Positions 38 through 13,073 of a DNA stretch of 15,335 nt are shown here, one piece after another. A program made the position numbers and the translations under genes. The DNA is from an uncultured Methylobacter sp. (GTDB lineage: Bacteria; Pseudomonadota; Gammaproteobacteria; Methylococcales; Methylomonadaceae): contig CAIKYI010000279.1 in assembly GCA_903831545.1 (NCBI GenBank), positions 1-15,335 on the forward strand, given 5' to 3'. Below the pieces are notes generated by a model that made no database searches, was not told where the DNA came from, and saw nothing but the letters and a program-made list of their open reading frames with translations. How positions within the stretch are numbered: the first letter of the stretch is position 1; each line of letters opens with the position of its first letter.

Positions 38-103
38 AACTTCATTCTGCCACATTCATCGCCATAAAGCTGCCAGTCGTGACAGGCCGGTTTTGGCCGA
101 CTG
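38..103 (+). repeat. Dispersed hairpin repeat, copy 1
   Basis: The 33-bp head at 38-70 matches 4590-4622 at 31 of 33 positions without gaps, and matches the minus strand at 12871-12839 at 25 of 33. A hairpin follows at once: CAGTCG at 74-79 pairs with CGACTG at 98-103 around an 18-nt loop. The flanking 1-312 bases hold no convincing gene; an open frame at 7-222 has no family resemblance. REP/MITE-like nature is inferred. Confidence 0.7.
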
Positions 104-312: not shown

Positions 313-1221
313 CTAATCTGAGCATACTCGGTTCCGTCCTCCCTCTTTTGCTCTATAAAGCGCATGGTCAGCGGCATCGTTTAGTGTCTTTGGCGAAAAG
401 TATTCCTGAATCTCGATTTGTGTAGCTACACCCACGCTAATGGTGACAACAGTCGCTGCTTCAGAATAAGTATGTGGCAAGGCGAGATGTTCTATGCCCT
501 CCCGCAAGCGTTCTGCAACTTTTAGTGCAGCTTGTTGATTAGTGTCGGGGAGAATAACCACAAATTCTTCACCACCATAACGCGCGATCAAATCACTCGG
601 GCGAACTATCATTTTGGCGAGCGCAGCAGCAACCCTTTGCAAGCAAATATCTCCAGCACCGTGACCATAATGATCGTTATATTGTTTGAAATGGTCAATG
701 TCGATCATAATCAAAGAAATTGGTGTTTTATGACGTATAGCTTGCTTCCATTCTGTTGTTAATGCTTCGTCAAAGCGACGACGATTGGGGATAAGCGTAA
801 GCGCATCAAGCAACGACATGGATTCCAGTAAGTCGGCTTGCAGCTTAAGATGAATATGGTTGCGAATACGGGCTTTGACGATAGGAATTACGAAGGGCTT
901 GGTAATATAATCAATAGCTCCCAGATTAAGCCCTTGTTCTTCATCCGCTTCGGCATTCAGGGTCGTGACAAAAATCACTGGAATTTTACGGGTGATAGTG
1001 TTTTTCTTAAGCTGCCTACAAACTTCAAAACCATCAATCTTCGGCATCATAATATCTAAAAGTATTAGATCAGGTTGCTCACGTTGCGAAATTTTTAATG
1101 CTTCCTCGCCATTATTTGCCACCTTAATCCGATATAAGGATTCTAAAGACTGTGCAAGAATTTTCACATTTAGAGGTGCGTCATCAACGATCAGTATCAT
1201 GGGTAGCTGGTTGTGTGTCAT
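313..1221 (-). CDS. Response regulator with GGDEF diguanylate cyclase output
   Basis: A 302-residue cytoplasmic protein that should make cyclic di-GMP from two GTP when its receiver is phosphorylated. The receiver spans about residues 7-122, with the acidic pair D13/D14, phospho-acceptor D56 in LLDIMMP and K108 in ITKPF. A GGDEF domain (about 135-300) follows a short helical linker; the active-site motif is RYGGEEF (GGEEF at 216-220), so catalysis looks intact. RPSD at 207-210, five residues before it, is a canonical I-site (RxxD), predicting product feedback inhibition. This is the PleD/WspR-like REC-GGDEF layout. The start codon overlaps the stop of the upstream kinase as ATGA, which implies translational coupling and that the kinase is the partner. 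No obvious terminator is seen downstream. The specific signal and the gene name are unknown. Confidence 0.93.
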   Translation of the reverse strand: MTHNQLPMILIVDDAPLNVKILAQSLESLYRIKVANNGEEALKISQREQPDLILLDIMMPKIDGFEVCRQLKKNTITRKIPVIFVTTLNAEADEEQGLNLGAIDYITKPFVIPIVKARIRNHIHLKLQADLLESMSLLDALTLIPNRRRFDEALTTEWKQAIRHKTPISLIMIDIDHFKQYNDHYGHGAGDICLQRVAAALAKMIVRPSDLIARYGGEEFVVILPDTNQQAALKVAERLREGIEHLALPHTYSEAATVVTISVGVATQIEIQEYFSPKTLNDAADHALYRAKEGGRNRVCSD

Positions 1222-4200
1222 ACAATGTCCTTAGTATTCGAAGGCGTTGCTAGCTGCTGAAGAATATTCTGTGCTTCGCCATAGCGAAGTTCATCGATTA
1301 GCTTACGTAACTGGACAAACAGGTCAAGTTGGGATGTGGATAGGTAAGAGTTAAATACGTTAAGAAAACTTTCACTAATGAAGTCATTTTCCTTAAGCAA
1401 CAACTCTAGCTCTACTATGCTGCGCTTTAATTCAAAGCTATTGCCGCTAGGAGATGGTATCGGCTCTTCCGGCTGGTCCAGTGCACAAATGGTTGACATT
1501 GTTTGGTTAAATGCAGCTCGAAATGCGCCAAACGTGGCAGTTGATGCCCCCTCTTTGAGTTCAGCTTCCAATTCCTTAGTAACGGCATGAAGTTTCACGG
1601 CGCCGACGTTACTGGATACGCCTCTAATCAGGTGAACTTTTTCTCTGGCTAAAACCCAATTCCCAGCCGAAATCATCGCTTCAATTTCATCAGGCACGTC
1701 TTTCATACTACCCCTAAAATCAAGCAGCAAGCGTGTTGCAAGTTTCTGATTATTGCCCAACATCAGCAATAGATTAGTTAAGTCGAGAGTTGGCAAATCA
1801 TTCATGCCTGATTGTTGCTCTAACAATAATTTGTCAGTAGTATTCGTTGTTGATCCAATCGGTTTTATCCAATTTATTAGTGTTGAAAAAAGTTTTTTTG
1901 GATCAATCGGTTTGGCAATAACATCATTCATTCCTATAGCCAAACATTTTTCTTGTTCCTCTTTGGTTACCCCAGCCGTCAGCGCAATAATTGGAAGCGT
2001 AGCAAAACGCACTTGGCTGCGGATCCATCTTGTTGCCTCAAAGCCACCCATCTCAGGCATGTGTATGTCCATTAACACTACATCAAATTCGCCGTTCTCA
2101 AGCAAAGTCAGTGCCTCTTTGCCATTATTGGCTATCTCGATCGTGATTCCAGACAGATTGAGAAATTCACCTACAACCCGCTGGTTGATCAAATTGTCTT
2201 CTGCAATAAGAACTCGCTTACCAATTAAAAGATTACTGGAATCGACTAACTCAGAAATGGGTTTTTCTGCTTTAACAGACGAAACACCAAAAACTAACTC
2301 GAAGCTAAAGCAGCTACCTTTGCCAGGACTGCTTGCTACTGAAATTTCACTGCCCATTAGTTGCAACAAGTTATGACTGATAGCCAAGCCGAGCCCAGTG
2401 CCACCAAAACGGCGGGTGATGGAGCCATCCACCTGACTGAACGGCTGGAATAATTTTTCACAATCCTTGTCCGACATACCGATACCCGTATCAGTAACAC
2501 AAAATAACAGCCGAACTTGTGAGTGACCTTGGTGCGAAACAGCAATGTTGAGCCTGACTGAGCCTTGCTGTGTAAACTTGATCGCATTACCCAACAGATT
2601 GACTAAAACCTGTTGCAGCCTGAGTGTATCGCCAATTAGGTAACGGGGAACATCAGGGGTACACTCTATATCGAAATCAAGGTACTTTTCTTGGGCTGGG
2701 GTAGCAAACAAGCTACTAAGATTGTCCAGAAGAACATCAAGATTGAAAGTGAGGTTATCAATGTCAATGCGTCCTGCTTCCAGTTTGGAAAAATCGAGTA
2801 TATCGTTAAGAATGCTCAGTAAACTGTTAGAGGAACTGTATATCTTTTCCAGATAGTCCCGACTTTCAACGGAAAGTTCTTTGTTCAGTGCCAGCTGCGA
2901 AAGTCCGATAATGGCATTCATCGGGGTTCGAATTTCATGTGACATGTTGGCGAGAAACTCAGATTTGGAACGTGTTAGAGATTCCGCCTGATCTTTAGCC
3001 AACAAGATAACGGCTTCGTTTTGCTTGCGCTGGGTGATGTCAAAAAATGAAACTACAGCCCCCACTGTCACCCCGTTGACGATTTGTGGATACGACCAAT
3101 ACTCCGCAGGAAAAGAAGTGCCGTCAGCACGCCATAGCGCTTCGTCGTCCACATGCACAGCGACTCCTTTTTGGAATGCCTGGAAAATTGAGCATTCTTC
3201 AATAGGAAAGAACGTTCCATCCGCGTGTTTTCCGTGAATCTGCCAATGCATGTTCTTGCCGAGCAGTTCTTCAGGATGCTTGTATCCAAGCACCTTGAGA
3301 CAAGCGGCATTGCTGAAGGTGCAGTTACCGATCATGTCTATGCCGTATATCGGTTCGGCAGCCGAATTTAGTAGGAGTTGGCATGTTTCTTCGGTTTGCT
3401 TGCGCTTGGTAATGTCCTGCGTTATACCGCGTATTAAGATGGGCTTACTTTCCTGATCATATTCAATTATCCCAGAGGATCGCAGCCAATTAATATTCCC
3501 CCCTCCTGTGACTATACGGTAATCTACGTCAAAATTCATGCTGGACTCACTATTGCGCTGTGTTGCATCAATCAATTTTTGCCGATCTTCTGAATGGACT
3601 ACGCCAATAAAATCATTCCATGTGGGCTCAATTAAGTCGGAAAATCCAAGGATCATGCTATAGTTTTTTGACGAGGATTGTTTGTTATTGATCAAATCAG
3701 CTTCCCAAGAACCAATGCCTCCACTTAACTGGCTTAGACGTAGGAATGTTTCACTTTTCTGCAATTCCTCGGTTTTTAACTTTACAAGTGCATCTAGTTC
3801 GCTATTGAGCTGTCTTAGTTGCTCTTGGGTTTCTTTGTGAAAACTGATTTCAGCTTCAAGTTTTTTATTCGCAAGCATCAAACTGGAGGGAGTAGGTATC
3901 AGTAAAGCTTTTGGAATTAACGGCCATAGCAAAATGGCTGTTATTAAGGAAGCAGTCGCAGTCAATGCTTCGGCTATGGCAGACAAGCCATAAACTGGAT
4001 TCCAAATTGTAACGACGGATAATACATGAGTGATGCCGCAGGCAGATATAAAGACACTGAATAAGGACAATATCCTACGAAAGTCAATGTCTTTGCGCTT
4101 GTAAGCAAAAGAAGCCAGAGCAATAGGAATGGAGAAATAAGATAATGCTGTGACTACATTTGATACAGTAAAGAGCCACAATATGGAAGGATTCCAAAGA

Positions 4201-4268
4201 AAACAATAACCATGAGGCATCATTCCAGTGGAATTAAATAAAAAGTCTACTGCCTGTTGATAAGCCAA
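1218..4268 (-). CDS. Hybrid sensor histidine kinase with ethylene-receptor-like membrane domain
   Basis: A 1016-residue inner-membrane phosphorelay kinase. Residues about 28-120 form three membrane helices resembling the ethylene-binding domain of ETR1 and cyanobacterial Etr1: YFSIP at 44-48 and CGITH at 77-81, with the copper-ligand Cys and His (C77, H81). Next come a coiled coil (about 130-172), two PAS/PAC domains (about 173-290 and 292-416), HisKA with H444 in MSHEIRTP, HATPase_c (N561; DTGIG at 593-597; GGTGLGL at 622-628), a receiver (D734 in LMDIHMP, K786) and HPt with H879 in VHLIRG. The tail (940-1016) is a helical bundle without an active His. The position matching ETR1 Asp25 is Asn37. 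The only start fitting the whole domain is TTG at 4268, with AGG seven bases upstream; an ATG at residue 16 would cut into the conserved PHGYCFLW region. The 3' end overlaps the diguanylate cyclase gene. Ligand binding is unproven. Confidence 0.92.
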   Translation of the reverse strand: MAYQQAVDFLFNSTGMMPHGYCFLWNPSILWLFTVSNVVTALSYFSIPIALASFAYKRKDIDFRRILSLFSVFISACGITHVLSVVTIWNPVYGLSAIAEALTATASLITAILLWPLIPKALLIPTPSSLMLANKKLEAEISFHKETQEQLRQLNSELDALVKLKTEELQKSETFLRLSQLSGGIGSWEADLINNKQSSSKNYSMILGFSDLIEPTWNDFIGVVHSEDRQKLIDATQRNSESSMNFDVDYRIVTGGGNINWLRSSGIIEYDQESKPILIRGITQDITKRKQTEETCQLLLNSAAEPIYGIDMIGNCTFSNAACLKVLGYKHPEELLGKNMHWQIHGKHADGTFFPIEECSIFQAFQKGVAVHVDDEALWRADGTSFPAEYWSYPQIVNGVTVGAVVSFFDITQRKQNEAVILLAKDQAESLTRSKSEFLANMSHEIRTPMNAIIGLSQLALNKELSVESRDYLEKIYSSSNSLLSILNDILDFSKLEAGRIDIDNLTFNLDVLLDNLSSLFATPAQEKYLDFDIECTPDVPRYLIGDTLRLQQVLVNLLGNAIKFTQQGSVRLNIAVSHQGHSQVRLLFCVTDTGIGMSDKDCEKLFQPFSQVDGSITRRFGGTGLGLAISHNLLQLMGSEISVASSPGKGSCFSFELVFGVSSVKAEKPISELVDSSNLLIGKRVLIAEDNLINQRVVGEFLNLSGITIEIANNGKEALTLLENGEFDVVLMDIHMPEMGGFEATRWIRSQVRFATLPIIALTAGVTKEEQEKCLAIGMNDVIAKPIDPKKLFSTLINWIKPIGSTTNTTDKLLLEQQSGMNDLPTLDLTNLLLMLGNNQKLATRLLLDFRGSMKDVPDEIEAMISAGNWVLAREKVHLIRGVSSNVGAVKLHAVTKELEAELKEGASTATFGAFRAAFNQTMSTICALDQPEEPIPSPSGNSFELKRSIVELELLLKENDFISESFLNVFNSYLSTSQLDLFVQLRKLIDELRYGEAQNILQQLATPSNTKDIV

Positions 4269-4589: not shown

Positions 4590-4662
4590 AACTTCATTCG
4601 GCCATATTCATCGCCATAAAGCGGACTGTCGCGACGGTCAGGTTTTGGCCGAGAACAGTCCG
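4590..4662 (+). repeat. Dispersed hairpin repeat, copy 2
   Basis: The 33-bp head at 4590-4622 matches copy 1 at all but two positions. The hairpin stem CGGACTGT (4622-4629) pairs perfectly with ACAGTCCG (4655-4662) around a 25-nt loop that contains GGTTTTGGCC, also present in copy 1. The stem sequence differs from the other copies although pairing is kept. Copies 1 and 2 have the same orientation and bracket the two-gene signalling operon. Confidence 0.75.
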
Positions 4663-4846
4663 TCAAGTTCGAAGAAAATTGAGTTAAGTTGGCCGTCAAC
4701 AGACGAATTATGACTGCAGTCCCACCCCAAAATTTGCCACCACGCCGCAACATTTCCCAGTAAGCTATGACTTTCAATGGCTTACGAGTTGCGGATTCAG
4801 GTTTAACGAATCCGAAACACTCGGGACACAATCCGCCAAGTTGCGA

Positions 4847-4983
4847 CAGTTTTTCGAGTTGGGTGGACCAAAGGGGGTAAAGGGGGTAAAGGGGGTAAAG
4901 GCGGTGTTCAATTTTACATTTCGACCACCACCTTTACCGCCTTTTCCGGCTTTAGATCGGACCGTTTGGAAAAATGTCTGCGC
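4847..4983 (+). repeat. Iteron-bearing origin-like site A
   Basis: Four tandem 9-bp units AAAGGSGGT run without gaps from 4870 to 4905 on the plus strand. Opposing units of the same consensus (AAAGGCGGT, AAAGGTGGT) lie on the minus strand within 4925-4950. The whole block resembles site B at 7991-8112 in the same orientation, including flanking TTTTTCGA and the trailing AAAATGTC. Such 9-bp iterons next to a replication primase-helicase suggest an initiator-binding site, comparable in layout to the ori/crr pair of satellite phage P4. The replication role is inferred. Confidence 0.65.
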
Positions 4984-5041
4984 GAGAAGCCGGGTTTTCG
5001 ATTCAATTGCGCTCGTGTGTGCCTTTCGAATCTTAACTAAT

Positions 5042-5077
5042 GTGGCAACTAGATAGTATCTGCTACTTAGTTGCCAC
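5042..5077. terminator. Perfect 10-bp inverted repeat after the primase gene
   Basis: GTGGCAACTA (5042-5051) pairs with TAGTTGCCAC (5068-5077) around a 16-nt loop, 8 bases past the stop of the primase-helicase gene. It has no U-tract on either side, so it is a stem-loop that may protect or end the transcript rather than a textbook terminator. The 10-mer AGATAGTATC occurs within it (5051-5060) and again at the gene's 3' end (5087-5096). Confidence 0.45.
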
Positions 5078-5084
5078 TTGTAAA

Positions 5085-7679
5085 TTAGATAGTATCGATA
5101 CCTAGAAGCTTATCAAGCCGCTCGTTATTGGCCATCTCTAGTTTTTTCTCTTCCGACATTACTGTTTTAGTAGTTAAATCTTGGGAAGCTGGATTAACCT
5201 CAATCACTTTCCAAGCTCCTCTTCCATCAGCCTCAGCTTTTTGAAGTTCGAAACCACCGACAATTCTATTTGCATTCTTTTTCAGCAACCAACCAAATTT
5301 TGAGTTATTGATGCTGCCTCGTTCTTCAATCGGGAATTCACGTATTGCATCCAGTAGATCAGTGTTGTGAGTTTGCGCACTATCAATGACCTTTCGAACC
5401 GTGGTAGCTTTAGATCCAAATATTAAGTGCCACTCCTTGAATAAAACCGACAGCTTTTCAGCATCGGGGTCGTGTGTAACTTGTTCCAGCAATGCCGTCG
5501 CAGGATCGGGGTGCCCTAACCACATTAAAGGATGACGACAATAGTCAGACCACAAACCACTATAGGTGACGATATTTTTATCATTAGATGTTGGTCTGCC
5601 CGCTGCTTGCCAGGCCAATATAATGGTGAATACCGCAGAAATATATTTTTCTCGTTGTTCACGTACTTTTTTCACCGGGAACCCTTGATAGACCATGGTC
5701 GCTGGAGTTGCCCTGCGAGGATCAATGTTAATGGTGAGTACTCTACGTAACAAATCACGCACAGGACCTACGTTATTTCCTGAACCCAGAATCAAAGTGC
5801 GCGTGCTAACTGTAGCCGTCTTACTGTAACCCAAAATGCGATCAGTAATCTTATCTGCAGTTAACATCCGTTTGATGGTACCGTGAGGAATCCAGTCAGT
5901 ATCCATGTCATCAAACTCAATCACCGCAGGGCATGTCATCAATAAGGACAACATAACTTTGGTCGCTTCCTCGGATGTGGCTGGATAGCTTACCTTGGCA
6001 TTGCCACCGGCTGCTGCGAAAGTACCTATGAGGTCACAAAGGTAAGTTTTTCCACTGCCGAACACGGGAGCTTTAATATGGTAGGCCGGTGCAAAGTCTA
6101 AAGTGGATCTGGTCGCGGCGGTGAACATCGCTGAAAGTGCTGCCGCTTTGTCAGTGTCGGCAACAAAATGGAATTCCACCAACAAATCAGTCAACACGAC
6201 CAAAGCCTCTTGCGCCATCTCCAATGTTGGATTGGCTGGAATGTTGTAAGCTTTCGAGTCGAATACGCCGAAAAGATTAGAAATGGAGTCATAACCCGTT
6301 TCGGTAACCAATTGACCGTCGATTTCCCTAAAGTAAGGTTGTCTGGTTACACCCGCCAAAGAAGGTAAGTGTTTGAAGTTTTGGGCATCATACAAAATTG
6401 AAATATGCCTCACTGGCGGATCACAACGAACCCATCCTTTAGTGCGACCGTCAAATTTTTCCCAAATGAGTGATGAAGATAATTTCCGAGTCAACGCCTC
6501 TCTAGTTATCGGCACAATGATGGAATTCCCCGTCAATGAATCGGTTTTAACAGAAACAATTAAACCTCCACTTTGATAAATATTCCCGGAATCGGCCAAT
6601 ACTTGTTCAACATTATCAACAATACGATCTATTTCACCCGCAACAAGCCGTAATATAGGCTTATGCCGAGCCTCTATATTCTGAACATTAAGAAATTCCA
6701 GTAATTCTGGAATATGATATTTTTCACGATGTGAGTGCTGACAACAAAAACCGCCTGTGGCGTATTGTTCATTGGGTTCAAAATAGGCGGTACCTGAATC
6801 AAGCGCATCAGTGTGTTCCTCCACCCAAGGACAAGTAATACCATGTTTAGCTGAACCTAGTGGTTTTTTGTAGAGACCTCTCGCTTTGAGAGCCGATATG
6901 ATGGGATTTTCGTTCGCTTTTGGTGTGAATACTTCGCTGCTATGCTGAACTGGAGTTGTGGGGTTAGCTGCAATGCTTTCGACAACAACGGTGGCTGACT
7001 CCAATTTAAGGCCCACCATTATTTCTTCGGGTGTATAACGTTTTCCAGGCTGAAACTTGCTCAACTTGCATTGAAATGGCTGACCTGAGGCATCAACATA
7101 TTTCTGTTTACCGTTAATCGCCTCGGGCAATCTTGCCCAACGACTCATAGGGCCTGTGGCACCTGGATCACTTAAATCTGCCTTAATGATGGCGTCAAGT
7201 AACTTGGTCGCTTCTTCACCGTCCACTAGGGGGTCAGAAAAAATGATGCCTGCTTGATAATTGCCGGGACTGGTTTCTACTAACCAAGAAGGTTCGAAGT
7301 CACCCAACAGTTCCAAAGGAAACTTGGTGCCCAGATCGTCCAGCATTAGGAAATGAGTGGCGGCGAAGTTTTCCTTACGAGCATTGAAAGGTTTATCAGC
7401 ATCAACGTGGAAACTTGAGCAATTAATGTAATTATTGGTATTACTCGAAAGGTCATCGACAACCGAATCAGCGCGTTTGGCAAACCAACCACCTACAGTG
7501 GGATCGTCTTTTTTGGTGCATATCGCTGGGTGAGCGTTTTCGGGAAGCTGCGTAAAAACAAGTTTGATGAATTCTGCGTTGGAAATGTTCGCAATGTCTT
7601 CAATAGTTTCGAATGTTTCTTCCAGTTGGTCGGAAGTATTATGTGATATTGATGGATTAACTGCTGTAATTGTATTCAT
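5085..7679 (-). CDS. Primase (RepB/AEP-like)-helicase replication protein
   Basis: An 864-residue multidomain protein likely to start replication of the element. Residues about 100-215 look like a RepB/archaeo-eukaryotic-type primase: LMLDDLGTK with D114/D115, ETSPGNYQ at 135-142, and RLP...N.K (R183, P185, N189, K191). A zinc-binding segment follows (C283, H289, C312/C313, H315/H317). The C-terminal half carries a P-loop NTPase: Walker A FGSGKT (GSGKT at 541-545), Walker B AVIEFDD (D590/D591), a sensor-like GSGNN (632-636) and arginines at 641, 645 and 646, as expected of a AAA+/SF3-type helicase. The start ATG at 7679 has only a weak AGAGA ribosome site. The gene runs opposite to the integrase and is bracketed by iteron sites A and B. 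A 6-bp inverted repeat (GAAATA/TATTTC, 7705-7720) just upstream could be an operator. It differs from P4 alpha, whose primase is Toprim-type. Family assignment is by motif reading only. Confidence 0.75.
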   Translation of the reverse strand: MNTITAVNPSISHNTSDQLEETFETIEDIANISNAEFIKLVFTQLPENAHPAICTKKDDPTVGGWFAKRADSVVDDLSSNTNNYINCSSFHVDADKPFNARKENFAATHFLMLDDLGTKFPLELLGDFEPSWLVETSPGNYQAGIIFSDPLVDGEEATKLLDAIIKADLSDPGATGPMSRWARLPEAINGKQKYVDASGQPFQCKLSKFQPGKRYTPEEIMVGLKLESATVVVESIAANPTTPVQHSSEVFTPKANENPIISALKARGLYKKPLGSAKHGITCPWVEEHTDALDSGTAYFEPNEQYATGGFCCQHSHREKYHIPELLEFLNVQNIEARHKPILRLVAGEIDRIVDNVEQVLADSGNIYQSGGLIVSVKTDSLTGNSIIVPITREALTRKLSSSLIWEKFDGRTKGWVRCDPPVRHISILYDAQNFKHLPSLAGVTRQPYFREIDGQLVTETGYDSISNLFGVFDSKAYNIPANPTLEMAQEALVVLTDLLVEFHFVADTDKAAALSAMFTAATRSTLDFAPAYHIKAPVFGSGKTYLCDLIGTFAAAGGNAKVSYPATSEEATKVMLSLLMTCPAVIEFDDMDTDWIPHGTIKRMLTADKITDRILGYSKTATVSTRTLILGSGNNVGPVRDLLRRVLTINIDPRRATPATMVYQGFPVKKVREQREKYISAVFTIILAWQAAGRPTSNDKNIVTYSGLWSDYCRHPLMWLGHPDPATALLEQVTHDPDAEKLSVLFKEWHLIFGSKATTVRKVIDSAQTHNTDLLDAIREFPIEERGSINNSKFGWLLKKNANRIVGGFELQKAEADGRGAWKVIEVNPASQDLTTKTVMSEEKKLEMANNERLDKLLGIDTI

Positions 7680-8305
7680 GATTTTCTCTTAAACATAAGT
7701 GCTAGAAATAGGGTTATTTCTGAAGAGGCCGCACTTGCGTTTTAAAGATAAATCATCTTTTGGATGTCACTAAGAATTAGACATGAATCATTGCGGTTAA
7801 TTAAGAGTCTCTTCACTTACCCTAGATCAACACTGAAAATCTAATTTGGTAAAAATATAGATCAAAAAAAGGGTTTGGTCAAATAATTATAAAAAATAAC
7901 AATCCAACGCATTGATTCACCCCTTTACCGACTTTTCCCAAGGCAGCTTAGAAAACTGTCGAAATTGAAATTCGAAAAAAACGAACACGACATTTTTTCG
8001 AACTGCCCCAAAAAAAGGTGGTGAAGGGGGAAAGGCGGTGCCAAACAAAAAATGCCGACTTTACCACCTTTACCGGCTTCACCGGCGCCGTTTAGTGAAA
8101 ATGTCAGCTGCTGTGGTAACCGCCATCTGAAACCTGAACTGAGTTCAAACGCCGACACCTGACCCCCAAACCACTCCGGCTCGGCATGTTTGGCGCTGCC
8201 CTATACTGACGTCACCCGGCACACCCCCGCTCCACCGGCGAGGCCCTGTAAATGCTTTGGCCTTACAATTTAAATTTAACTACCTTTCAACACTGGAGTT
8301 CCACC
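7680..8305. promoter_or_regulatory. Divergent control region with candidate origin
   Basis: This 626-bp gap separates the leftward primase gene from the rightward genes. From left it holds an inverted repeat GAAATA/TATTTC (7705-7720), a second, AAAGAT/ATCTTT (7744-7760), a very AT-rich tract (about 7835-7917), minus-strand iteron units (7920-7935) and iteron site B. An isolated TATACT at 8202-8207 may be a -10 box for the gene at 8306, but no good -35 accompanies it. The AT-rich tract beside iterons is what a replication origin with an unwinding region looks like; that role is inferred. A frame open at 7925-8158 is judged non-coding. Confidence 0.5.
7991..8112 (+). repeat. Iteron-bearing origin-like site B
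   Basis: Plus-strand units AAAGGTGGT (8014-8022), GAAGGGGG (8023-8030) and AAAGGCGGT (8031-8039) are followed by four 9-bp minus-strand units in 8054-8089 (best match AAAGGTGGT). The order, spacing and flanks match site A at 4847-4983, so the two are diverged direct repeats on either side of the primase-helicase gene. Two further units lie at 7920-7935 next to the AT-rich tract. Confidence 0.65.
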
Positions 8306-8698
8306 ATGAAAATAATATATGTTTCAACACTCATCCTTTTGTCCTCAATCGTCCACGCTGAAAAATACTACCCGACCGACAACTACGGCAACAGGAAATA
8401 TGGCCAAACTGCTTACGAACGGAACGGCGACCGACTCCTTCCCATTGATAGTTTTGGGAATCGCCGGTCCGGTAGTAGCTTCAAGATTGACGGTAACAAG
8501 ATATCGCCCATCGACGCCCACGGTAACATGAAACAAAATGAAAACTTTTATCGCATCAATAAGGACGGTCGTATCAATGCCACCGACACTTACGGAAACC
8601 GGAAATTTGAGGATTTCAAAATTGAAGGCAATAAAATAGTACCGGTAGATTCTTACGGCAATCATAATCCAAAAAGAATGGGGTACATCAAGAAATAG
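8306..8698 (+). CDS. Secreted repeat protein with PxDxYGN units
   Basis: A 130-residue protein of unknown function. The ATG at 8306 is chosen over an upstream in-frame start because it has GGAG seven bases before it and begins a clean signal peptide (about residues 1-18, hydrophobic, ending VHA before EKYY). The mature part is almost entirely five units with the core [PA]-x-D-x-[YFH]-G-N at residues 23-29, 46-52, 68-74, 92-98 and 113-119, spaced 21-24 residues. Between them are strand-like stretches such as FKIDGNKI and FKIEGNKI. This suggests a small periplasmic or secreted beta-rich repeat protein; no cysteine or lipobox is present. It is the first rightward gene after the control region and looks like cargo rather than replication machinery. 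I do not recognise the family. Confidence 0.75.
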   Translation: MKIIYVSTLILLSSIVHAEKYYPTDNYGNRKYGQTAYERNGDRLLPIDSFGNRRSGSSFKIDGNKISPIDAHGNMKQNENFYRINKDGRINATDTYGNRKFEDFKIEGNKIVPVDSYGNHNPKRMGYIKK

Positions 8699-10529: not shown

Positions 10530-10565
10530 GGTACCTGATCCGCGGTTGGGATTGGGTGCCTTTTT
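10530..10565 (+). terminator. Weak terminator candidate before the integrase
   Basis: GGTACC (10530-10535) can pair with GGTGCC (10555-10560, one G-U pair) around a 19-nt loop, and is followed by TTTTT (10561-10565). The stem is short and the loop long, so this is a weak call. If real, the integrase has its own promoter or depends on read-through. Confidence 0.35.
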
Positions 10566-10590
10566 CAACATCACAAAATGGAGATTTATT

Positions 10591-11775
10591 ATGCCCATCA
10601 TTAAACTAAGCCAATCGTTCATTAACAATAATCTTCAATGCTTGGAAGCTAAAGCGCGGATAGAATATTGTGATCAGGACACACCAGGCCTTTATGTCGA
10701 GGTCAGAAAAACCAGCCCGGGGCAGGGCACCTATTACTTGCGCTACAAAGACTCAAAAGGTAAAACCTGTCATCAGAAGATCAGTAAAGCTAATGAAATG
10801 ACCTTGATCGAAGCCCGTAAAGCGGCCAAAACCTTAAAGGCGGAAATCAACTTGGGTGCAGATCCGAGGGGTGAAGAGAAAGCAAAAAGGGCGGTTCTGA
10901 CTTACGCTGAGTTCTTCACAAACCATTACATGCCTTATGTTAAGGTACGTAAACGCTCATGGAAAACTGATGAAGGGTTTTATCGTTTGCGGTTGAAAGC
11001 CGAGTTTGGTGATTTACGTCTCAATCAAATCACCCGGCAACATATCCAAACCTTCCACACATCAATGAGTGATGAAAACTTGGCGGCGGCCACCTCCAAC
11101 CATTACCTGAAACTGCTGAAACACAGTCTTAATTTGGCCATTGATTGGGATATGCTGGATATTATCAACCCAGCCAGTCGCATTCCGCTATTCCATGAGG
11201 ATAATCAAGTTGAAAATCTACTTTCCGATGAGCAACTGGAAAGGCTTCTGACAGCCTTGAAGACCGATGAAAATAAAATGGTCTGTTTAATCGCCTTATT
11301 CTTGCTTTCAACCGGGGTTAGATTGAATGAAGCACTTCAAGCAAAATGGACTCATGTGGATCAGAAAAATCGCGTGTGGCGTATTCCGGCGGCCAATTCA
11401 AAAAGTAAACGGACCCGTGCAGTGCCTTTGAATGACAGCGCTCTTGAGGTGTTGAATCAACTTACTACCAAAGGAGTCTACGATAATGTGTTCATCAACT
11501 TTCAAACCGGTTTACCTTACACCACCATATCAAAGGTGTGGGGTAGGTTACGAAAGAAAGCGGGATTGCCGCACTTACGTATCCATGACCTAAGACACCA
11601 ATACGCTTCATTTTTGGTGAATTCGGGTCAGACCCTGTTTATGGTACAGCAAATTCTGGGCCATTCCAGCCCTTCGGTGACACAACGATATGCGCATCTA
11701 TCGACTCGGTCATTGCAGGAAGCAGCCAATACCGCATCGGTCATGATCAAGGGGGCGATGGCGACCACGGCCTAG
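10591..11775 (+). CDS. int: Tyrosine recombinase (phage-type integrase)
   Basis: A 394-residue site-specific recombinase that would integrate and excise the element. ATG at 10591 is preferred over the upstream in-frame ATG at 10546 because GGAG lies seven bases before it and the MPIIKLS start is more typical. An N-terminal arm-binding region (about 1-95) is followed by a SAM-like core-binding domain (about 100-195: YAEFFTNHYMPYVKVRKRSW, then ITRQHIQTFH) and the catalytic domain. Catalytic residues are R244 in TGVRLNEA, a lysine in SKSKRTRAVPL, H332/R335 in HDLRH, H358 in LGHSS and the nucleophile Y367 in RYAHLS. All are present, so the enzyme looks active. It is the last gene of the rightward run, as expected beside an attachment site, but no att core or tRNA could be identified. 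Confidence 0.95.
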   Translation: MPIIKLSQSFINNNLQCLEAKARIEYCDQDTPGLYVEVRKTSPGQGTYYLRYKDSKGKTCHQKISKANEMTLIEARKAAKTLKAEINLGADPRGEEKAKRAVLTYAEFFTNHYMPYVKVRKRSWKTDEGFYRLRLKAEFGDLRLNQITRQHIQTFHTSMSDENLAAATSNHYLKLLKHSLNLAIDWDMLDIINPASRIPLFHEDNQVENLLSDEQLERLLTALKTDENKMVCLIALFLLSTGVRLNEALQAKWTHVDQKNRVWRIPAANSKSKRTRAVPLNDSALEVLNQLTTKGVYDNVFINFQTGLPYTTISKVWGRLRKKAGLPHLRIHDLRHQYASFLVNSGQTLFMVQQILGHSSPSVTQRYAHLSTRSLQEAANTASVMIKGAMATTA

Positions 11776-12679: not shown

Positions 12680-13073
12680 TAGATTTCGGATTTATCAGTT
12701 TTGTAGACTGAACTACTGTTTTGACTTAAACCGTATTCTGCAAGGCAACCCTATAAAAATAGATGCTTTAATCAGGTATTGAAGTCACGACCGTCAGTCC
12801 GTCAGTCGTCGGAAAAAAGTTGCCCGTCACGACTGACCGCTTTAAGGCAATGGATGTAAAAAAAAGAAGTTCAATCGCTCAACTCCTGACTGTCGGAACG
12901 ACCTATCCAGATTTTGCCTTTATCCATTGAAGACGAAAATACAGTTTTTTCAATGGATTTAAGTGCCCCTTTGGACAGTCGTAGCGAGTTACAATCGGCA
13001 ATAATATCTTCATACAACGTCTCATAAGAAACGCCATAAATCGGCTTCTAAGTTTCTCTGGAATTATACCGGG
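12680..13073. other. Gap with repeat copy 3 and a 10-bp inverted repeat
   Basis: No coding frame is supported. Besides repeat copy 3 it contains a perfect 10-bp inverted repeat (ATCCATTGAA at 12922-12931, TTCAATGGAT at 12949-12958, 17-nt loop), which could end transcription from either side although only short T-runs flank it. The tandem CCGTCAGT (12791-12798, 12799-12806) lies next to the copy 3 hairpin. Confidence 0.45.
12801..12871 (-). repeat. Dispersed hairpin repeat, copy 3 (inverted)
   Basis: On the minus strand the 33-bp head runs from 12871 to 12839 and matches copy 1 at 25 of 33 positions without gaps. Its hairpin is the strongest of the three: GTCAGTCGT (12837-12829 read on the minus strand) pairs with ACGACTGAC (12809-12801) over 9 bp with a 19-nt loop. 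It is the most diverged copy and lies opposite in orientation to copies 1 and 2. Confidence 0.65.

What the first reader, a model, noticed from the sequence alone, without database searches (positions are those of the whole stretch)
4847..8112. Two diverged iteron sites in direct orientation flank a primase-helicase gene
Site A (4847-4983) and site B (7991-8112) share 9-bp units of consensus AAAGGNGGT, first on the plus then on the minus strand, with matching flanks. They sit just beyond either end of a RepB-like primase/helicase gene; site B adjoins an AT-rich tract and extra units at 7920-7935. Phage P4 also uses two separate iteron-bearing regions (ori and crr) recognised by its primase-helicase, but P4 alpha is Toprim-type. 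A comparable two-site origin served by a RepB/AEP-type initiator would be a different replicon design.
Basis: partly seen in the sequence, partly recalled or inferred. Interest (0 to 1): 0.7.

Follow-up and report, generated by a model that had tools for sequence, protein, structure and literature searches.

The report
Palindromic iteron origins flanking a primase-helicase
A mobile element carries, on each side of its own replication gene, a long palindrome of 9-base repeats that is most likely where the encoded protein starts copying DNA, and in many relatives matching sites are written into the two ends of the gene itself.

Summary
The two sites are real. Each is a palindrome: GACAG/GACAT box, about 20 nt, 9-bp units on the plus strand, then a mirror copy (4845-4978; 7989-8105). 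A fifth, degenerate half-site lies at 7909-7960. The gene encodes a RepB'-type primase, an SF3-type helicase and a winged-helix-like C-terminus. A second contig of the same genome carries the module (87.5%) in different surroundings.

In 31 of 44 close loci one half-site sits at each end of the gene, usually inside the reading frame, with several codon columns nearly fixed to rare codons. Ten of 13 relatives at 40-44% identity keep the layout with another unit (AAAACCGAY or similar). Of 34 more distant loci, 27 have one palindrome of 8-10-bp units near the gene's 3' end. One is Streptomyces plasmid pWTY27, whose published RepA footprint coincides with the pair my scan picked.

Best reading: initiator-binding palindromic iteron origins, site A being the family-typical one. 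New are the doubling, the split coding-embedded form and the family-wide pattern. Binding, replication and a circular form are untested here. pWTY27 and pRN1 are closer precedents than P4.

The parts
4845..4978 (.). Site A: palindromic iteron site, 106 bp 3' of the replication gene
   Evidence: 4845-4983 folded as DNA: z = -4.0, 0 of 200 shuffles as stable
4845..4905 (+). Left half-site of A: GACAG box plus four 9-bp units (4870-4905)
   Evidence: 4845-4896 scores 49.0 bits with the relatives' profile
4927..4978 (-). Right half-site of A: three units plus GACAT box
   Evidence: 50.1 bits
7989..8105 (.). Site B: palindromic iteron site, 309 bp 5' of the replication gene
   Evidence: 7986-8110 folded as DNA: z = -2.2, 4 of 200 shuffles as stable
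7989..8040 (+). Left half-site of B, one unit shortened by a base
   Evidence: 20.8 bits
8054..8105 (-). Right half-site of B
   Evidence: 46.3 bits
7909..7960 (-). Fifth, degenerate half-site between the AT-rich tract and site B; also present in the second copy (L009 4597-4648)
   Evidence: 13.3 bits; 12.2 bits in the copy
7836..7919 (.). AT-rich tract (0.77), candidate melting region
7854..7882 (-). Promoter-like site (10 of 12) reading into the gene; the region has no excess of such sites over shuffles
5085..7679 (-). 864-aa replication initiator: RepB'-type primase (about 34-225), SF3-type helicase (Walker A 541-547), C-terminal winged-helix-like domain (about 737-829)
   Evidence: Pfam RepB_primase 3e-9; structure matches; C-terminal model
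10546..11775 (+). Tyrosine integrase, probably of the same element

Best explanation
Sites A and B are initiator-binding origin sites of an integrative element. The encoded protein binds the 9-bp units, most likely through its C-terminal winged-helix-like domain. Because the units form two facing arrays, two hexamers of the SF3-type helicase can assemble head to head; the duplex is melted and the RepB'-like primase domain lays primers for the host polymerase. Site A, 3' of the gene, is the family-typical origin. Site B, beside an AT-rich tract and the likely promoter, is a second site: an alternative origin, a copy-number or looping partner, or an operator. In most close relatives the two palindromes are replaced by one half-site at each end of the gene, inside the reading frame. 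Shown here: the sites, their conservation, DNA-level constraint, and the fit to a published footprint in a homologue. Inferred: binding, hexamer loading, priming, and the roles of A against B.
Confidence: 0.75

Rival explanations
1. Site A is the origin; site B (and the 5' half-site in relatives) is mainly an operator or copy-number site, where the initiator represses its own promoter or pairs with site A. This overlaps with the best explanation and differs only in the role of B.
For: Distant homologues show only one palindrome, near the 3' end of the gene (27 of 34 loci). Site B and the fifth half-site lie upstream of the promoter-like site.
Against: In the close clade and the 40-44% clade both ends are usually kept (31 of 44 and 10 of 13), and in the close clade the 5' site is under strong DNA-level constraint.
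Confidence: 0.35
2. The palindromes act as hairpins on single strands, recognised by the RepB'-like primase, as ssiA and ssiB of RSF1010 are.
Against: In the embedded form the two halves lie about 2.4 kb apart, so the pair cannot form a local hairpin, yet the arrays stay conserved. Site B folds less significantly (4 of 200 shuffles as stable). pWTY27 RepA, which binds, is the helicase partner; the primase-like RepB is a separate protein.
Confidence: 0.15
3. The half-sites are terminal inverted repeats of a cassette that moves the replication gene.
For: The module is shared with contig C710 while neighbours differ; 52-nt inverted half-sites bracket the gene in 31 of 44 loci.
Against: No transposase is encoded between the sites and I saw no target duplication (read by eye). 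Some relatives, for example L031, L032 and L060, share sequence outside the sites. Distant relatives have one palindrome on one side, and one such palindrome is a proven initiator site. Mosaic exchange of an initiator with its cognate sites explains the boundary.
Confidence: 0.05
4. The arrays are selected as protein linkers (GKGGEGG; PPLTPSPP), not as DNA.
For: All 31 in-frame 5' sites and all 30 in-frame 3' sites keep one frame; of the best 120 proteins 82 carry the first motif and 78 the second by a strict pattern.
Against: Codon choice is nearly fixed to rare codons at several columns; the same arrays are non-coding here and in C710, and lie beyond the stop in L045, L050, L063 and L071.
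Confidence: 0.02

Closest known systems
Streptomyces plasmid pWTY27 repA and its iteron region
   Same: Helicase-type initiator (27% identical over residues 411-829); palindrome of iterons about 120-220 bp 3' of the gene, two units spaced 9 bp in each arm; RepA footprint on the 105-bp inverted repeat; bidirectional mode inferred there from linear propagation (PMC3583192: passages and section 8)
   Different: Primase is a separate protein; one origin region only; unit GTGGGAAC; site in a non-coding stretch
Crenarchaeal plasmid pRN1 (ORF904) and phage BIP-1
   Same: AEP primase, SF3 helicase and winged helix in one protein; large stem-loop 3' of the gene, about 100 nt and required in pRN1, predicted in BIP-1 (PMC4234260: passages and part 1 of section 18)
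   Different: That paper says the pRN1 origin lacks an iteron structure, and describes one stem-loop only
SaPI Rep and SCCmec Cch2 initiator helicases
   Different: Cch2 binding needs its direct repeats and not the inverted ones; no sequence match of this protein to SaPI Rep or Cch chains in the PDB search
RSF1010 RepB' primase with ssiA/ssiB
   Different: Iterons are bound there by a separate protein, RepC, and DNA is unwound by RepA (PMC4234260)
Satellite phage P4 alpha protein
   Same: One protein that binds repeats with a winged helix, unwinds and primes (PMC4234260); two separate regions ori and crr (recalled)
   Different: Toprim primase (PMC4234260); its repeat sites as palindromes at both ends of the gene are not known to me (recalled)

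Membership tests
RepB_primase (PF16793) AEP primases | Sequence and fold of the RepB' catalytic domain | tested here: met
RepB_primase (PF16793) AEP primases | Primer synthesis | not testable with these tools
   needs purified protein
SF3-type initiator helicases (D5, SaPI Rep, NrS-1) | AAA+ core with Walker A, Walker B and motif C | tested here: met
SF3-type initiator helicases (D5, SaPI Rep, NrS-1) | C-terminal winged helix that binds DNA | tested here: inconclusive
Palindromic-iteron origin (pWTY27 type) | Two facing arrays of short units next to the helicase gene | tested here: met
Palindromic-iteron origin (pWTY27 type) | Initiator binds the arrays | not testable with these tools
   seen in print for pWTY27 only (PMC3583192)
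Phage P4 type replicon | Toprim (bacterial-type) primase | tested here: not met
   RepB_primase and AEP fold at the N-terminus instead
Integrative element | Integrase and attachment sites | tested here: inconclusive
   Integrase present; no att repeat found

The most novel reading that the evidence does not exclude
A split origin. In the clade to which this element belongs, the origin is made of two half-origins at the two ends of the initiator's own reading frame, each loading one helicase ring. Firing needs both halves brought together across the gene, so that the gene is the built-in spacer of its origin and only a complete gene can replicate; the window keeps a doubled, non-coding version of this.
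Probability: 0.25. Interest if true: 0.82.

Novelty: new variant of a known kind. Interest (0 to 1): 0.68.

Why it matters
It turns scattered cases (pWTY27, pRN1) into a testable rule for a large family of mobile-element initiators (1831 proteins at E <= 1e-20 among the 7993 candidates scored): look for facing arrays of mostly 9-bp, sometimes 10-bp, units near the 3' end of the gene, or one at each end of it. It also bears on whether these initiators read a hairpin or duplex iterons: conserved half-sites 2.4 kb apart favour duplex arrays. Iterons written into both ends of a coding sequence, with codon choice nearly fixed, are an unusual overlap of origin and gene.

Tried and rejected
Attachment sites and empty site: shared 13-mers between the two sides of the window, and DNA searches of 23 same-genus genomes with the left and right flanks, gave dispersed repeats, paralogous sensor genes and a remnant of an integrase end, but no att pair. 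Left open.

Protein-linker and transposon-end readings were rejected (see rivals). First detectors: the AAAGGNGGT scan and a strict array scan (12 of 93 loci at period 9, 0 of 93 in each of two shuffles) were too narrow for other units. Searches treated genome-search loci as oriented and unclipped when some were not; correct strand and coordinates, and I rely on those. The off-target and direct-orientation controls exist only, with that flaw.

Rows dropped: one search left out 4 of 97 loci (L026, L068, L073, L102). One search took the 44 loci at 55% identity or more and left out L073. Tree labels were set by hand, mainly, include weak cases (L011, L017, L072, L090, L091, L092, L098), and 21 of 92 rows are unlabelled; L020 and L025 are identical copies; the tree is a quick search and reports long branches that meet.

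Folds not listed are not excluded: Foldseek against PDB gave no match at E <= 0.001 for the C-terminal piece.

Not in print, as far as searched: ten paper searches (listings only, except the passages and sections cited) showed me no description of coding-embedded paired iterons for this family; the library lacks most subscription journals.

Full report
WHAT IS THERE. Both sites exist at the stated place and are far beyond chance. Nine of ten exact AAAGGNGGT matches of the window lie in them, and the two-unit pattern gives 9 matches against 0.07 expected. Each site is an inverted repeat: box GACAG or GACAT, TTTT and about 20 nt, three or four 9-bp units, a short spacer, then the mirror image. 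A fifth degenerate half-site (7909-7960) lies between the AT-rich tract (0.77 AT) and site B. A half-site profile counted from 75 sites of relatives, without this genome's sites, scores the five half-sites at 49.0, 50.1, 13.3, 20.8 and 46.3 bits; none of 100 shuffles reaches 5 bits. 'Direct orientation' says little, since each site is nearly self-complementary.

SECOND COPY. Contig C710 of the same genome (L009) has the same layout with a protein 87% identical. Nucleotide similarity to the window forms one long block, 4878-8139 (87.5%), that is from inside site A to just beyond site B; the other matches are between the sites themselves. Gene and sites have moved together.

CLOSE RELATIVES. Of 44 loci at 55% identity or more (window and C710 included), 31 have a plus-strand half-site at the 5' end and a minus-strand half-site at the 3' end, both at 20 bits or more, typically about 2.4 kb apart. 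Three more (L044, L047, L068) are cut by a contig end and have the half-site at the other. Six (window, C710, L056, L057, L059, L061) have arrays outside the gene on both sides instead, L056 with a variant unit and L059 in a more complex order. L053, L071 and L072 pass the threshold at the 3' end only; L054 shows only an array cut off by the contig end 141 bp after the stop. In the embedded form the arrays are translated, as GKGGEGG and PPLTPSPP; of the best 120 database proteins (the window's own included), 82 have the first motif and 78 the second by a strict pattern, 61 both.

CONSTRAINT IS ON DNA. All 31 in-frame 5' sites share one frame, as do all 30 in-frame 3' sites. At several columns codon choice is nearly fixed to codons that these genes otherwise use little: Thr ACA 27 of 28 (background 0.14), Val GTT 24 of 24 (0.16), Gly GGT 25 of 29 and 29 of 30 (0.24), Pro CCT 29 of 29 twice and 24 of 28 (0.15), Leu TTA 22 of 27 (0.04), Thr ACT 26 of 26 (0.10), Val GTC 28 of 28 (0.25). 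Other columns vary, and one Gly column of the middle unit has GGC 21 and GGT 8, against the unit consensus. As a control, 213 conserved four-fold columns of the core in 31 genes have a median of 0.60 for the commonest codon, and one column reaches 0.95. Sequences are related, so these are not independent counts. In L045, L050, L063 and L071 the 3' array lies beyond the stop codon.

MORE DISTANT RELATIVES. At 40-44% identity (13 loci without the Sphingomonas group L064, L067, L069), 10 have inverted arrays at both ends of the reading frame with another unit, AAAACCGAY or close variants; 8 of the 10 beat all 60 shuffles, 2 (L090, L092) are reached by 1 of 60. L016 and L094 match over part of the protein only, and L011 showed no such pair. 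Among 34 loci at 36% identity or less, which share mainly the helicase part, 22 have a palindrome with period 9 at, inside or beyond the 3' end (19 beat all 60 shuffles, 3 are reached by 1 of 60; 0.7 kb beyond in L081). In 5 more it shows at period 10 or 8 (L089, L097, L100, L104, L108); in 7 I saw none (L026, L084, L087, L088, L102, L105, L109), of which L026 and L102 match in the primase part and were not. Two of the 22, L020 and L025, are identical copies, and for some (L079, L096) period 10 fits as well or better. Units look like GTGGGTTTN, GCAGGGTTT or GCGGGTATT. Over 93 loci, period 9 beats all 60 shuffles in 69, periods 8, 10 and 11 in 7, 16 and 3; 15 loci have none of the four. Controls: 70 off-target stretches gave 7 at period 9, one being a real extra site in L071, and 3 each at periods 8 and 10; direct-orientation pairs on target were significant in 23 of 92 (with strand errors in some loci; inverted pairs in the same setting 63 of 92).

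INDEPENDENT EXPERIMENT. Streptomyces plasmid pWTY27 turned up as a homologue (27% over residues 411-829). In PMC3583192 (passages and section 8 read) its RepA binds by gel shift and DNase I footprint (405-509) to a 105-bp inverted repeat made of iterons 3' of repA, and the authors infer bidirectional replication. I had seen the paper's passages before that scan. PMC4234260 (passages and part 1 of section 18) reports that pRN1, with an AEP-SF3-winged-helix protein, needs a 100-nt stem-loop 3' of its gene, and says its origin lacks iterons.

TREE. On a helicase tree of 92 rows (quick search), layouts and units follow the protein: single 3' palindromes 1 change, AAAACCGAY embedded 1, AAAGGCGGT embedded 2, external on both sides 3; all four labels together 4 changes where 3 is the least, shuffled mean 33.3. 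The 60 rows that hold both embedded groups and the external group form one side of a branch with SH-aLRT 100. Labels were set by hand and 21 rows have none. Between the two unit groups (24 and 11 rows) identity is lowest in residues 771-829 (0.35, against 0.79 and 0.63 within), as expected of a recognition domain, though this is not proof.

MECHANISM. Most likely the initiator binds the facing arrays, forms two helicase rings, melts the DNA and primes. Site A matches the family-typical origin. Site B may be a second origin, a looping or copy-control partner, or an operator; sequence alone cannot decide. The embedded form, with halves 2.4 kb apart, argues against a local hairpin as the general requirement and suggests a split origin.

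VERDICT. Observation confirmed; interpretation partly supported. A new variant of a known kind: the palindromic-iteron origin is known, while the doubled and the split, coding-embedded forms were not met in the papers searched.

Noticed in passing
window 38-100, 4590-4652, 12822-12872: A dispersed repeat of about 50-63 bp in the flanks; pieces of it also match in many same-genus genomes. It looks like a REP-type repeat.
   Followed up: partly
L009 7279-7898 and the contig end: The second copy's contig carries an antitoxin-like and a Doc-like gene, by appearance of the sequence, after its integrase, and a tRNA-like sequence at the end (no family search or tRNA scan was run on these).
   Followed up: no
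window 8252-8698: Small protein with repeated D-x-(Y/F/H)-G-N motifs just beyond site B; no Pfam family above cut-off.
   Followed up: no
L104 6374-6510 (Psychrobacter plasmid pA32H2): A 6.5-kb circular plasmid has a 10-bp version of the inverted iterons 3' of its replication gene; a handy model replicon.
   Followed up: partly
L071 3445-3566 and 5455-5579: Dechloromonas chromosome: two full palindromes upstream plus degenerate half-sites at the gene ends, perhaps a transition between the two layouts.
   Followed up: partly
L035 9185-9236, L053 4119-4170, L058 4821-4872: Extra half-sites away from the gene in some close relatives.
   Followed up: no
window 313-4268: Hybrid sensor kinase and diguanylate-cyclase response regulator beside the element; many similar stretches in the genus.
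   Followed up: no
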